Positions 29,732 to 61,573 of a stretch of 64,000 nucleotides of DNA are shown here, piece by piece; position 1 is the stretch's first letter, and each line of letters begins with the position of its first letter. The notes beneath the pieces are model-generated. The model did not search any database, had not been told where the DNA came from, and saw nothing but the letters and a program-made list of their open reading frames with translations. This DNA comes from a virus: positions 20,532-84,531 of the IMG/VR virus record IMGVR_UViG_3300028392_000053. One strand, written 5' to 3'. Made by a program: the position numbers and the translations under genes.

Positions 29732-29759
29732 TTGACATTTTCTGTGGCTGTGTTATAAT
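29732..29759 (+). promoter_or_regulatory. Sigma70-type promoter
   Basis: Perfect TTGACA (29732-29737), 16-base spacer, perfect TATAAT (29754-29759), 27 bases before the start of the CobT-like gene. The two TTTGTGACAAA palindromes end 15 bases upstream. Confidence 0.8.
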
Positions 29760-55726: not shown

Positions 55727-56386
55727 ATGTTTACACATTGCCCACCAATGGTTCTTCCGGACCTAAAATCGGAAACACATACTGACGGTAAACGTTACTA
55801 CACATCACCAAGCGGTAAACGTTTGCCTTCTGTGACAACTGTTGTTGGTGCAATGAAGAAACAAGCAATTATGGAATGGAGAAATCGTGTTGGCGAAGTT
55901 GAAGCCAACCGAATCTCCAAACTTGCAACGGGCCGTGGTAATCGTGTGCATGACCTTGCAGAACGATATCTGAAGAATGAGGAGATTGTATGGGTGCGGG
56001 AAATGCCCGATTCGGTAGAAATGTTCCGTACATTGATTCCACACCTCCATAGAATAAATAATATACATTATATTGAACAGGCACTTTGGTCTGAACGAAT
56101 CGGTTTAGCTGGTCGTGTTGACCTCATTGCTGAGTGGGATGGTGTTTTATCTGTAATCGACTTTAAAACATCGAAGAAGATTAAGAAAAAGGAAGACATT
56201 CAAGACTATTTTGCACAATGCACAGCATATGCTGGTATGTACGAAGAACATGTTTCTGTACCGGTTGACCAAATTGTGATTGTTATGGCAGTTGAGAATG
56301 AAGAACCTCTGATTTTCATAGAGAAAACTGGAGATCATATAAATACCTTGTTGGAACACATAGAGTTCTATTTAAATAAAAAATGA
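55727..56386 (+). CDS. RecB/Exo5-like PD-(D/E)XK nuclease
   Basis: 219 residues. SGKRLPSVTTVVGAMKK at the start, LAGRVDLIAEWDGVLSVIDF then KTSKK give the D...(D/E)xK active site, and QDYFAQCTAYAGMY the QxxxY motif. Similar to Cas4/Exo5-type exonucleases of cyanophages. Likely acts in recombination or host DNA breakdown. Confidence 0.85.
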   Translation: MFTHCPPMVLPDLKSETHTDGKRYYTSPSGKRLPSVTTVVGAMKKQAIMEWRNRVGEVEANRISKLATGRGNRVHDLAERYLKNEEIVWVREMPDSVEMFRTLIPHLHRINNIHYIEQALWSERIGLAGRVDLIAEWDGVLSVIDFKTSKKIKKKEDIQDYFAQCTAYAGMYEEHVSVPVDQIVIVMAVENEEPLIFIEKTGDHINTLLEHIEFYLNKK

Positions 56387-57390: not shown

Positions 57391-57407
57391 TATTACCAAA
57401 ATATCAC

Positions 57408-57436
57408 TTGACAACTGAATAAAAACCTGCTATAAT
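57408..57436 (+). promoter_or_regulatory. Consensus sigma70 promoter for the tmRNA
   Basis: Perfect TTGACA (57408-57413), 17-base spacer, perfect TATAAT (57431-57436). It is the strongest promoter by sequence in the window and sits directly before the tmRNA acceptor piece. Confidence 0.88.
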
Positions 57437-57442
57437 AGTAGT

Positions 57443-57740
57443 TATGGTTGTATGAAGCAACTAGAAAAGTGTTCTGGACGGGGGTGCAAATCCCCCCACC
57501 TCCACCAAAGTAATATTTTCTGTAGTAGACCCAGAAAGCAGATGCCGATACTATGGTTAGTGTTACTTTGATGGGGGTGTACTCAGTATTCGACAGAGCA
57601 ACAAGTACAGAAGTGGACAACTCATCAGAGAAGATGTAAAAACTAAAACCAAGTAAACGCAAACGACTCACAGTTCGCATTGGCAGCCTAAACGCTGACT
57701 AGGGTTTCGGTAGGTTTCCTCGTAACAGAATAACCTACCA
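57443..57740 (+). ncRNA. ssrA: Circularly permuted (two-piece) tmRNA
   Basis: Order is 3' acceptor piece, spacer, 5' coding piece. Acceptor piece (to 57507): T stem GGGGG/CCCCC (57480-57484, 57492-57496) with loop TGCAAAT, acceptor strand CACCTCC, discriminator A and encoded CCA. Coding piece from 57573: GGGGGTG pairs with CACCTCC and puts a G-U at the third pair, the alanine identity mark. It goes on with TATTCGACAG (D-like loop). The tag frame starts with GCA at 57659 and reads ANDSQFALAA, stop TAA at 57689. CAGAGC (57594) can pair with GTTCTG (57471). The spacer's AAGTAAT and GTTACTT extend the acceptor stem, as needed for processing. The end is taken at the hairpin repeat. Confidence 0.9.
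57701..57740 (+). repeat. 40-base hairpin repeat, copy 1 (end of tmRNA)
   Basis: Stem GGTAGGTT/AACCTACC (8 pairs) with a 15-base loop, preceded by AGGGTTTC. Identical over 40 bases to 58009-58048. It may be the last pseudoknot or 3' boundary of the coding piece. Confidence 0.8.
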
Positions 57741-57778
57741 TTTTAGTAAACACACACTCACACACAAGGAGAAATCTT

Positions 57779-58000
57779 ATGAGTAAAACACCTTTTGAAA
57801 TCCGTTTAAGTCTTTTAGACATGGCAAAGGACTTGGTAACACAAGACTTTCACATTAAAAAAGAAATGCTAATGGAACAATGGCATCGTAGTTCTGAAGT
57901 TGATAAATCGCTTCCCGTACCAGTATTGGTAGCGTATCCTACTGAAAAAGAAATTATTGCCAAAGCAAAATTACTTAATGCTTTCGTTTCTAACGAATAA
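57779..58000 (+). CDS. Conserved small phage protein (73 aa)
   Basis: ACAAGGAGAAATCTT precedes the ATG, a strong site. KTPFEIRLSLLDMAKDLVTQ, then VLVAYPTEKEIIAKAKLLNA. It is known to me as a short conserved protein of T4-like cyanophages. It lies between the two 40-base hairpin repeats, directly after the tmRNA. Function unknown. Confidence 0.75.
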   Translation: MSKTPFEIRLSLLDMAKDLVTQDFHIKKEMLMEQWHRSSEVDKSLPVPVLVAYPTEKEIIAKAKLLNAFVSNE

Positions 58001-58008
58001 TCATTAAA

Positions 58009-58048
58009 AGGGTTTCGGTAGGTTTCCTCGTAACAGAATAACCTACCA
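58009..58048 (+). repeat. 40-base hairpin repeat, copy 2
   Basis: Exact copy of 57701-57740, here behind a protein gene and 25 bases before the next one. No T run follows, so it is not a standard terminator. Confidence 0.8.
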
Positions 58049-58553: not shown

Positions 58554-59108
58554 ATGCAAAGTAAACCAATACTTTTAAGCATACTATTTTCCGCAATTAT
58601 TTTAGCACTGTCGATGGTAAATATAAACTTATATAATTTACCATTCAAGGCTAGTTACGATTCTCTAGATAAAGAGACACAAAGACAAGTAACATGCCTA
58701 GCAGATAATATTTATTTTGAAGCCGCGCATGAGCCACTTGATGGCAAGAAAGCTATTGCTTTCGTTACAATTAATCGACTTCAAACTGGAAATTATGCAA
58801 AAGATATTTGCGGAGTAGTGTATCAAAAAACTGGTAACACATGTCAATTCTCATGGTTTTGTGACAAAAAGATTACCGATAAACAGTTGACAATACGTGA
58901 CACTTCGTTGTATAATGAAATTCGACAGTTAGCAATCAATATGGTTATCAACTTTGAACAACAAAAAGATGTTACAGGTGGAGCAACCTATTACCATGCA
59001 GACTATGTTAATCCTCAATGGAATTTAAAAAAGGTAGACCAAATTGGAAGACACATCTTTTACAGAAGCAACAAAGACGAAATCAATCGAAACAAAGGAA
59101 TCATCTAA
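58554..59108 (+). CDS. SleB-type cell wall hydrolase
   Basis: 184 residues from ATG 58554 (AGGAAATAAAA). An N-terminal membrane anchor (ILLSILFSAIILALSMVN) precedes QVTCLADNIYFEAAHEPLDG and KKAIAFVTINRLQT, the catalytic block of SleB-like peptidoglycan hydrolases with glutamate in YFEAAHE. CQFSWFCD and GATYYHADYVNPQW are later conserved parts. It may act at the membrane during virion entry or lysis. Confidence 0.85.
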   Translation: MQSKPILLSILFSAIILALSMVNINLYNLPFKASYDSLDKETQRQVTCLADNIYFEAAHEPLDGKKAIAFVTINRLQTGNYAKDICGVVYQKTGNTCQFSWFCDKKITDKQLTIRDTSLYNEIRQLAINMVINFEQQKDVTGGATYYHADYVNPQWNLKKVDQIGRHIFYRSNKDEINRNKGII

Positions 59109-59109
59109 A

Positions 59110-59325
59110 ATGAATAAAGAAGCTATTACGGTTATCATTTGTATCACACTTACAATGTGTGCAACTATCGCCGCTTTTACAATTTATAATATTAATGACC
59201 GTAACAACATGTCTAAGAATATTGAATCGGCTATTCAAAAAGGTATCGATCCAATCTCGGTCAAGTGTGCATATGAAACTAACGCTAATGCTGTTTGTAT
59301 TGCATATTCGATGGGTAAAAAGTAA
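59110..59325 (+). CDS. Small one-pass membrane protein (71 aa)
   Basis: Start at 59110 with AAAGGAATCATC upstream. MNKEAITVIICITLTMCATI then AAFTIYNI is the membrane segment; KGIDPISVKCAYETNANAVC is exposed with two cysteines. Its stop overlaps the next start (TAATG). Function unknown. Confidence 0.65.
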   Translation: MNKEAITVIICITLTMCATIAAFTIYNINDRNNMSKNIESAIQKGIDPISVKCAYETNANAVCIAYSMGKK

Positions 59326-59546
59326 TGGCTACGAAAGATGAACAAAGAAAGTTCTCTGCTATTATTGAAGAAATTGTAAAGACCAAAAGAATTGGTTATA
59401 TGGATGCCGTACTTCTTCATTGTGAAGATACTGGTTTTGAAGTTGAACTTGCGGCAACTCTCCTTACAACACCAATCAAGTCTAAGATTAATGATGAAGC
59501 ACAGGCTGGTAATATGATTAAGAAAGTGAATAAGTTACCAATATGA
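59325..59546 (+). CDS. 33: gp33-like late-transcription accessory protein
   Basis: 73 residues. MATKDEQRKFSAIIEEIVKT, YMDAVLLHCEDTGFEVELAA and KSKINDEAQAGNMIKKVNKL then PI follow the pattern of the short gp33-like proteins of T4-like cyanophages. In T4, gp33 links RNA polymerase to the sliding clamp at late promoters. It is followed by gp59, as in T4-like genomes. Medium confidence, since the protein is short. Confidence 0.7.
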   Translation: MATKDEQRKFSAIIEEIVKTKRIGYMDAVLLHCEDTGFEVELAATLLTTPIKSKINDEAQAGNMIKKVNKLPI

Positions 59547-60148
59547 CCGAAGCCGGTGGTTATGATGCCTTTGCGTTGTTTCATGGATTAAAACTCCATT
59601 TTACAACAAATTATGATTATGTGAAATACAATGGTAAAATCTCCATTGGTAAAGACTCATTCATGCTACGGAAAGATAAGTTTCATTTCTATAAACTTTC
59701 TCGTAAATACAAGAAAGATGAATTGTTCGGTTTCTATATTGCCAATCTACTACACAATCCAAAATGTTGGGCTGGTGATTTACTGTTGGAAGATGCCGAA
59801 TCGGAGTACAAAGTTTGGCTCAAAACTCAACAATCCCTCTCATACATTTTTGAGCAGGACTTATCTACCGCATTAGATTCGGTAGACAATCCAGAAGAAT
59901 TGCTAAAGGTGGTTGACAGGCAGTATCCGATGTTATATAATCTATACTTACATGATAAAGTGAAAAAGGAAACAATACTCATTCTCAATGACTTTATGAA
60001 TTTTATGCCTATGTGGAAAAAGAAAGTTGAAGATGATATATTGTTTCCTGACTTCACCAAAAGTTGTGAAAAGTACAAGCCATTCTTTTTATATGATGAA
60101 CAAAAAATGAAAAAGATTCTGAAGGATAAAATATGCCAATTAGCATGA
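59543..60148 (+). CDS. 59: gp59-like DNA helicase loader
   Basis: 201 residues. GGYDAFALFHGLKLHFTTNY, DYVKYNGKISIGKDSFMLRK and KFHFYKLSRKYKK are the N-terminal signature of T4 gp59, which loads the gp41 helicase on gp32-covered DNA. Length is close to T4 gp59 (217). The gene lies near gp32 as in T4. Overlaps both neighbours. Confidence 0.85.
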   Translation: MTEAGGYDAFALFHGLKLHFTTNYDYVKYNGKISIGKDSFMLRKDKFHFYKLSRKYKKDELFGFYIANLLHNPKCWAGDLLLEDAESEYKVWLKTQQSLSYIFEQDLSTALDSVDNPEELLKVVDRQYPMLYNLYLHDKVKKETILILNDFMNFMPMWKKKVEDDILFPDFTKSCEKYKPFFLYDEQKMKKILKDKICQLA

Positions 60149-60697: not shown

Positions 60698-61573
60698 ATG
60701 TCAGCATTCGAAAATCTAAGACGCTCTAGCAACCTAGACAAACTCTCAAAGGCTATTGAAAAACTCAATACAGCCGAATCTCCCACCAAAGAAGATAATT
60801 TCTGGAAACCCGAAGTCGATAAGGCTGGTAACGGTTATGCAGTTATTCGTTTTCTTCCACAACCCTCGGTTGATGGTGATGATGCACTACCTTGGGCAAA
60901 AGTTTTTAATCATGGCTTCCAGGGACCTGGTGGCTGGTACATTGAAAACTCACTCACTACTCTTGGCCAAAAAGATCCAGTTTCTGAATACAACTCTCAG
61001 TTGTGGAACTCTGGCATCGAAGCAAACAAAGAAGTAGCACGTAAACAAAAGCGTCGTCTTTCTTATATCGCCAACATTTATGTTGTTGAAGATCCTAAGA
61101 ATAGCCAAAACGAAGGTAAAGTCTTCCTTTACAAGTTCGGTAAGAAAATCTTTGATAAAATCACCGAAGCAATGAATCCCGCTTTCGAAGATGAAAAAGC
61201 AGTTAATCCATTTGACCTGTGGGTAGGTGCTAACTTCAAGTTGAAGATTCGTAAAGTTGAAGGTTATCAGAATTATGACAAATCTGAATTTGAATCTCCA
61301 TCACCTCTATTGAGTGATGATGAGGAACTAGAAGCAATCTGGAAGAAAGAATACTCTCTTAAAGAGTTCCTTGCGCCAGAAAACTTCAAGTCTTATGATG
61401 AATTGAAGGCCCGCCTTGATAAGGTTCTTGGGCTTGATGGTTCACCAGTGGTTGCAAAGACCACGGTTGAACAAGCTAAAGCAATGCCACGTAAACCTGC
61501 TCCAGTAGCAGAAGATGCTGGTATGGCTGATGATGATGACCTTGCATACTTCAGCAAACTAGCCGAAGACTGA
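60698..61573 (+). CDS. 32: Single-strand DNA-binding protein, gp32 type
   Basis: 291 residues. N-terminal MSAFENLRRSSNLDKLSKAI (the cooperativity or LAST-type segment), core PQPSVDGDDALPWAKVF and NPFDLWVGANFKLKIRKVEG, acidic C-terminal tail (EDAGMADDDDLAYFSKLAED) that binds partners such as gp59. The whole protein has no cysteine, so the zinc site of T4 gp32 (H64, C77, C87, C90) is absent. ACAAGGAAAATACC precedes the ATG. A strong terminator follows. Confidence 0.9.
   Translation: MSAFENLRRSSNLDKLSKAIEKLNTAESPTKEDNFWKPEVDKAGNGYAVIRFLPQPSVDGDDALPWAKVFNHGFQGPGGWYIENSLTTLGQKDPVSEYNSQLWNSGIEANKEVARKQKRRLSYIANIYVVEDPKNSQNEGKVFLYKFGKKIFDKITEAMNPAFEDEKAVNPFDLWVGANFKLKIRKVEGYQNYDKSEFESPSPLLSDDEELEAIWKKEYSLKEFLAPENFKSYDELKARLDKVLGLDGSPVVAKTTVEQAKAMPRKPAPVAEDAGMADDDDLAYFSKLAED

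What the first reader, a model, noticed from the sequence alone, without database searches (positions are those of the whole stretch)
57408..57740. Phage-encoded, circularly permuted tmRNA with its own consensus promoter
The sequence shows a full two-piece tmRNA plan: acceptor piece with T arm and encoded CCA, 65-base spacer, then 5' piece with the G3-U pair for alanine and a tag frame ANDSQFALAA plus stop. A perfect TTGACA/TATAAT promoter sits directly upstream. Permuted tmRNA genes are known from alphaproteobacteria, some cyanobacteria and some betaproteobacteria. Phage tmRNAs are known, but a permuted one in a T4-like phage seems rare. It suggests the phage keeps its own ribosome rescue and hints at the host lineage.
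Basis: partly seen in the sequence, partly recalled or inferred. Interest (0 to 1): 0.9.

Follow-up and report, generated by a model that had tools for sequence, protein, structure and literature searches.

The report
Phage two-piece ribosome-rescue RNA (tmRNA)
A T4-like virus of bacteria carries its own complete ribosome-rescue RNA in the rearranged two-piece form; this kind is already known in aquatic phages, but its relatives turn out to hide protein genes in the piece that is cut out.

Summary
Window 57441-57740 holds a complete circularly permuted (two-piece) tmRNA gene: Rfam beta_tmRNA 122.8 bits (cut-off 84), tmRNA_permuted 112.7 (cut-off 47); ARAGORN reads the same tag, ANDSQFALAA. The promoter is a perfect TTGACA-17-TATAAT. 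In 53 distinct phage relatives, located without demanding pairing, all 7 acceptor and 5 T-stem pairs hold in 53/53, with many compensatory changes. The tRNA elbow also covaries (U55 with G18, or G55 with A18; no exception). The RNA is almost certainly functional and must borrow host SmpB, since none is found in the 84.5-kb record.

The rarity claim is not supported: two-piece phage tmRNAs are published (53 of 133 unique phage tmRNAs; Melnitz, Mosig), and over 100 viral contigs carry this 3'-end type. The host hint is weak.

New at family level: the tmRNA's 3' pseudoknot is duplicated behind the next gene (58009-58047). In related phages the excised spacer encodes proteins under purifying selection (HNH-like, 50-aa, 52-aa families), and GIY-YIG genes repeatedly interrupt or adjoin the tmRNA with rebuilt ends. 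The window's own 65-nt spacer has no gene. Verdict: new member of a known kind, in an unusually interesting family.

The parts
57408..57436 (+). Perfect consensus sigma70-type promoter TTGACA-17-TATAAT
   Evidence: 4 such sites in the window, 0.08 expected; lies inside the region modelled by RF01850; similar promoter at the same place in L005, L010, L011 with TATAAT or TATACT
57446..57507 (+). Acceptor piece: helix-2 strand, T arm (57480-57496, loop TGCAAAT), acceptor 3' strand 57497-57503, A57504 and encoded CCA 57505-57507
   Evidence: pairing unbroken in 53/53 relatives
57508..57572 (+). Spacer, 65 nt, predicted to be excised; forms a 12-bp stem extending the acceptor stem; no ORF
   Evidence: -21.0 kcal/mol, z -5.28, 0 of 200 shuffles as stable; terminal helix of at least 7 bp in 50/53 relatives
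57573..57658 (+). 5' part of the coding piece: acceptor 5' strand GGGGGTG 57573-57579 with G3-U, D-loop analogue CAGTATTCGAC, helix-2 strand, region upstream of the tag
57659..57691 (+). Tag reading frame ANDSQFALAA, stop TAA
57701..57740 (+). 3' end module: probable H-type pseudoknot, S1 AGGG/UCCU, S2 GGUAGGUU/AACCUACC, A-rich loop
   Evidence: S2 pairs standard in 49-50 of 50 distinct relatives for 7 of 8 pairs, with several pair types; the S1 pairing is inferred
57779..58000 (+). Conserved 73-aa protein of unknown function, directly downstream of the tmRNA in near relatives (not gp33)
   Evidence: 43 relatives in viral contigs; no Pfam or PHROG match; 13-18% identical to gp33 of Mosig and S-SCSM1
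58009..58047 (+). Second copy of the tmRNA 3' module behind the 73-aa gene; 40 nt identical to the first copy
   Evidence: same arrangement in L005-L007, L010, L011; site without the unit in L082

Best explanation
This is a working, phage-encoded, circularly permuted tmRNA. Host RNA polymerase starts at the promoter 57408-57436 and makes one precursor (inferred). RNase P would cut at 57572/57573 and 3' processing would leave the encoded CCA at 57507, releasing the 65-nt spacer. The acceptor piece and the coding piece then stay together through the acceptor and helix-2 stems and the tRNA elbow; the pairing is shown here by covariation, the cleavage is inferred from known two-piece tmRNAs. Host alanyl-tRNA synthetase charges it through G3-U, host SmpB and EF-Tu deliver it to stalled ribosomes, the ribosome translates ANDSQFALAA, and the ALAA end sends the product to host proteases (established tmRNA biology, not tested here). 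The 3' pseudoknot most likely marks and protects the 3' end of the coding piece in a transcript that runs on into the next gene. Its second copy behind the 73-aa gene probably does the same for that mRNA and marks an insertion or deletion seam (inferred). Likely benefit: keeping ribosomes free during infection, when truncated mRNAs abound (inferred).
For: Two independent programs and two Rfam models. In 53 distinct phage tmRNAs found by sequence anchors without demanding pairing, every acceptor and T-stem pair is standard in all 53, with pair types swapped on both sides (acceptor pair 4: GC 31, CG 22; pair 5: CG 22, GC 19, AT 11, TA 1; T pair 2: GC 32, CG 13, TA 7, AT 1); helix 2 swaps UA/AU/CG and GC/AU; the elbow is U55 with GG in 36 and G55 with AG in 17, no exception. 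The T arm and the D loop lie in different pieces, so this supports joint folding. Spacer stem z -5.28. 3' stem covariation. Promoter. Gene order nuclease - tmRNA - gp33 - gp59 - gp32 as in Mosig. No site above the beta cut-off in 249 genomes of the phylum of a Caulobacter genome (best 72.3 bits), so the window's 122.8 is not generic background.
Against: No expression, end-mapping, charging or tagging data. No SmpB in the record, so function depends on the host. The T loop lacks U55 (TGCAAAT), although A18 accompanies it and the same combination is found in Caulobacterales genomes. The coding piece alone does not fold better than shuffles (z +0.73), as expected if it needs the other piece and pseudoknots. 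The host is unknown.
Confidence: 0.92

Rival explanations
1. The RNA is a decoy: it occupies SmpB or stalled ribosomes and blocks the host's trans-translation, as proposed for the tag-less tmRNA domain of mycobacteriophage DS6A.
For: DS6A precedent (PMC4131195; PMC11915505); no phage SmpB in the record.
Against: A complete tag with stop codon and usually an ALAA end is kept in the relatives, and the whole charging and elbow geometry is maintained by compensatory changes; a decoy would not need a tag.
Confidence: 0.04
2. It is a recently captured host ssrA or attachment-site remnant carried along without function.
For: ssrA is a common integration site of mobile elements (PMC4131195).
Against: The gene is complete, with promoter and 3' module; it occurs in more than 50 distinct phage versions with unbroken covariation and in a syntenic interval of T4-like phages. 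Bacterial genomes were not searched thoroughly with the 3' module.
Confidence: 0.02
3. The tmRNA serves mainly to tag and destroy host proteins and recycle amino acids early in infection (proposed for Melnitz), rather than to rescue phage translation.
For: Consensus early-type promoter; the proposal in PMC9004378.
Against: Nothing known makes tmRNA select host over phage proteins; it acts on stalled ribosomes (established knowledge).
Confidence: 0.1

Closest known systems
Betaproteobacterial permuted tmRNA, Rfam RF01850 (beta_tmRNA)
   Same: Whole-length match (1-331) at 122.8 bits including promoter region, both pieces, tag and 3' hairpin
   Different: The modelled terminal hairpin (about the last 20 positions) is missing, the T loop is TGCAAAT, and the 3' loop reads UCCUCGUAACAGAAU; about 39 bits above the cut-off, so a divergent member
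Two-piece tmRNA of Methylophilales phage Melnitz and Pelagibacter phage Mosig (PMC9004378; MT647606)
   Same: Permuted tmRNA in a T4-like aquatic phage; in Mosig between the PD-(D/E)XK nuclease and gp33, the same interval as here
   Different: Melnitz is described as alpha-like and controlled by a glutamine riboswitch; here beta-like with a consensus promoter; the Mosig tag is read as GEDNFALAA
Permuted tmRNAs of Stenotrophomonas phages (Menderavirus, e.g. Marzo), Xanthomonas phage Rb1, Acinetobacter phage BUCT628
   Same: Permuted tmRNA, acceptor piece 78-84% identical over 48-69 nt
   Different: Longer alpha-like tags (VAANDDSYTVRIAA, ANDDNFRPALRLAA, ANDNVFGAKTLAA) and no CCTCGTAACAGAA 3' module
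tmRNA genes with HEG-bearing group I introns (PMC11915505)
   Same: Homing endonuclease genes residing in a tmRNA gene
   Different: In relatives of the window's gene the HNH-like genes sit in the processed spacer of a permuted gene, with no self-splicing intron; the window itself has none

Membership tests
Circularly permuted (two-piece) tmRNA | Acceptor piece with T arm and CCA position precedes the coding piece | tested here: met
Circularly permuted (two-piece) tmRNA | Seven-pair acceptor stem between the pieces with G3-U for alanine | tested here: met
   57497-57503 with 57573-57579, 7/7; G3-U in 53/53 relatives, where pairs 1-3 were fixed by the anchors and pairs 4-7 were free
Circularly permuted (two-piece) tmRNA | Tag frame ending in a protease signal, then stop | tested here: met
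   ANDSQFALAA, TAA
Circularly permuted (two-piece) tmRNA | Rfam RF04321 above gathering score | tested here: met
   112.7 bits, cut-off 47
Circularly permuted (two-piece) tmRNA | Precursor cut into two mature RNAs, spacer removed | not testable with these tools
   needs RNA end mapping
Circularly permuted (two-piece) tmRNA | Works in trans-translation with SmpB | not testable with these tools
   SmpB gene absent from the 84.5-kb record; host SmpB assumed
Beta-type tmRNA (RF01850) | Above gathering score of RF01850 and best of the clan at this place | tested here: met
   122.8 bits against 84; the lower-scoring clan match was left out
Beta-type tmRNA (RF01850) | Host is a betaproteobacterium | not tested
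   subtype differs between near relatives at the same locus, so subtype is a poor host marker
T4-like phage (Mosig/cyanophage-like branch) | T4 core replication genes in order: nuclease, gp33, gp59, gp32 | tested here: met
   gp59 59543-60148 (PF08993), gp32 60698-61573 (58-60% to P-SSM2, HTVC008M), nuclease 55727-56386; gp33 candidate 59325-59546 by position and sequence pattern only

The most novel reading that the evidence does not exclude
The window's tmRNA is one plain member of a large, almost uncultured family of aquatic phage tmRNAs in which permutation is put to use: the spacer that is cut out of the precursor serves as a slot for protein genes (HNH-like endonucleases and small conserved proteins under purifying selection), and GIY-YIG and HNH genes that target the tRNA-like domain or the tag bring replacement ends with them, so that tmRNA modules and the 3' pseudoknot are shuffled between phages. 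The duplicated pseudoknot around the 73-aa gene in the window would be a trace of that shuffling.
Probability: 0.6. Interest if true: 0.75.

Novelty: new member of a known kind. Interest (0 to 1): 0.5.

Why it matters
The window's gene adds a well-supported beta-like, promoter-bearing example to the known phage two-piece tmRNAs and shows that they are common, not rare, in uncultivated phages. The relatives give clean natural mutants (compensated stems, an elbow pair swapped between two separate RNA pieces, a covarying 3' pseudoknot) for testing how two-piece tmRNA assembles. If the spacer genes are real, they give a concrete selective reason for keeping a permuted tmRNA gene and a new, intron-free home for homing endonucleases.

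Tried and rejected
The 73-aa gene as gp33: first inferred from synteny with Mosig, rejected by alignment (13-18% identity); the gp33 candidate is 59325-59546. A second tmRNA in the record (15.5 bits): it is a tRNA-Ala in a tRNA array. Cyanophage hits: chance match inside a structural gene region where it was checked. Same tag-plus-3' region in named bacteria: an exact pattern scan of 84,980 species found none, but that pattern demanded a phage-like TAGGGTT, so it says little. U55-to-G55 as decay: rejected, because A18 always accompanies it and Caulobacterales have the same. Host lineage from tmRNA subtype: rejected as unreliable. Sampling betaproteobacterial genomes: not possible with the handles available; the phylum sample held none above the beta cut-off. 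Leftover elements in L055 and L123, first read as broken second tags: most are a palindromic stretch upstream of the reverse-strand endonuclease gene; L080 does keep a tag remnant. A literature search for endonuclease genes in permuted tmRNA spacers found none in the held library; the library lacks most subscription journals, including the 2004 third-lineage paper.

Full report
OBSERVATION. ARAGORN calls one tmRNA gene in the 64 kb, permuted, at 57415-57782, tag ANDSQFALAA. Rfam gives beta_tmRNA (RF01850) over its whole length at 57394-57745, 122.8 bits, E 6.5e-37, and tmRNA_permuted (RF04321) at 57446-57691, 112.7 bits. The acceptor strands 57497-57503 and 57573-57579 pair 7/7 with G3-U. The promoter at 57408-57436 is a perfect TTGACA-17-TATAAT, one of four in the window where 0.08 are expected.

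CONTEXT. The window is bases 20532-84531 of an 84,531-bp IMG/VR record. It is T4-like: PhoH and a PD-(D/E)XK-type exonuclease lie upstream, gp59 and gp32 (58-60% to P-SSM2 and HTVC008M) downstream. Pelagibacter phage Mosig has nuclease - small gene - SsrA - gp33 - ... - gp59 - ... - gp32; cyanophage S-SCSM1 has the same core without the tmRNA. So the tmRNA sits in a conserved interval. I first took the 73-aa gene at 57779-58000 for gp33; alignment refuted this, and the gp33 candidate is 59325-59546. No SmpB gene is in the record.

IS IT FUNCTIONAL? From these I located 53 distinct tmRNAs with sequence anchors and no pairing requirement at acceptor pairs 4-7 and the T stem. All pairs are standard in 53/53, with many double changes, and helix 2 swaps CUG/CAG for CAA/UUG. 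The T loop and the D loop, which lie in different RNA pieces, covary: U55 with GG (36) or G55 with AG (17), no exception. The window is of the second type. The second type also occurs in Caulobacterales genomes, so it is not a phage invention. The spacer folds into a 12-bp extension of the acceptor stem (z -5.28), and 50/53 relatives keep a terminal spacer helix of at least 7 bp. This is strong evidence for a maintained, folding, two-piece tmRNA; processing, charging and tagging remain inferred.

THE 3' MODULE. AGGGUUUC-GGUAGGUU-UCCUCGUAACAGAAU-AACCUACC has the layout of an H-type pseudoknot (S1 AGGG/UCCU inferred; S2 shown). In 50 distinct copies located by the loop alone, seven of eight S2 pairs are standard in 49-50 copies, with several pair types. 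A second copy, 40 nt identical, follows the 73-aa gene at 58009-58047. It is at the same place in L005-L007, L010 and L011 and, after a divergent 73-aa relative, in L149. More distant relatives have ordinary terminator-like hairpins there (read from the sequence). L082 shows the site without the unit: tmRNA and one copy run directly into what follows the second copy in L010. The two copies are thus direct repeats around a gained or lost gene. Free-standing copies also follow unrelated genes (L077, L101). I read the module as a 3'-end marker and exonuclease barrier used by the tmRNA and by some mRNAs; this is inference.

MOSAIC. The spacer of the window has no match in any near relative tested except the identical L009, while the tag and 3' module are 95-100% identical to several. 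L005, whose neighbouring protein is 95% identical, has another acceptor stem and spacer. Modules of the gene therefore change at different rates or by exchange.

FAMILY-LEVEL FINDING. In L118/L295-L297 the spacer is 531 nt and holds an HNH-like ORF (Pfam HNH 20.0 bits, just under the curated 21.4). All 12 full-length relatives of that protein (53-100% identity) lie inside the spacer of a permuted tmRNA with 7/7 acceptor pairing. Of 23 distinct spacers of 130 nt or more, 15 hold an ORF that fills or nearly fills the spacer (p at most 0.0033 each against mononucleotide shuffles, uncorrected), usually with an AAGGA just after CCA and a stop next to the coding piece; 96 shorter spacers show no excess. 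The 52-aa, 50-aa and HNH-like families show dN 0.09-0.35 against dS 1.0-2.4, saturated in places and from three sequences each. GIY-YIG genes of one family lie on the opposite strand behind the tag in 34 of 55 relatives with the full tmRNA in view, often with a second 3' module beyond them. In L064 and L370 a GIY-YIG or HNH gene follows a broken tRNA-like domain and is itself followed by a complete tmRNA. The held literature reports endonuclease genes only in group I introns of tmRNA genes, and a tRNA-Ala in one permuted spacer (PMC11915505). The window's own spacer has no ORF.

KNOWN OR NEW. Two-piece tmRNAs in phages are known (PMC9004378: 53 of 133 unique phage tmRNAs, 50 of the 53 from marine or aquatic samples; 17 of 47 Melnitz-cluster contigs). 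The window's gene is a new member of that kind, beta-like and with a consensus promoter. The tag-plus-3' module has no match in 50,697 phage records, so its branch is essentially uncultured. The spacer genes are, as far as I could search, undescribed.

LIMITS.

Noticed in passing
L118, L295-L306 (e.g. L297:1340-2140): HNH-like endonuclease gene encoded inside the 482-531-nt spacer of a permuted phage tmRNA; all 12 full-length homologues found sit there.
   Followed up: yes
L102, L103, L163, L388 (52 aa); L080, L120, L159 (50 aa); L155, L047, L409, L414: Small proteins encoded in the excised tmRNA spacer, ribosome-binding site next to CCA and stop next to the coding piece; purifying selection in the 52-aa and 50-aa families.
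   Followed up: yes
L375-L418 (L055:7154-8030, L080:309-1360, L123:1302-2140): Reverse-strand GIY-YIG gene directly behind the tmRNA tag, with a rebuilt tag or 3' end before it and often a second 3' pseudoknot after it; looks like homing into the tag region.
   Followed up: partly
L064:1391-2500 (reverse strand), L370:1400-2340: Endonuclease gene inserted in the tRNA-like domain (behind the D arm, or in the T loop), followed by a complete second acceptor piece, spacer and coding piece.
   Followed up: partly
57485-57491 with the D-loop analogue near 57583-57592; relatives: Tertiary covariation across the two RNA pieces: U55 with G18 or G55 with A18, no exception in 53 phage tmRNAs; G55/A18 also in Caulobacterales.
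   Followed up: yes
58009-58047; L077 ~791; L101 ~2528 (reverse strand); L149 ~537: Free-standing copies of the tmRNA 3' pseudoknot behind protein genes.
   Followed up: partly
G000:C1:758-3825 (locus L002): Array of 13 tRNA genes near the other end of the same phage record.
   Followed up: no
29732-29759, 58887-58916, 59913-59941: Three further perfect TTGACA/TATAAT promoter-like sites on the + strand.
   Followed up: no
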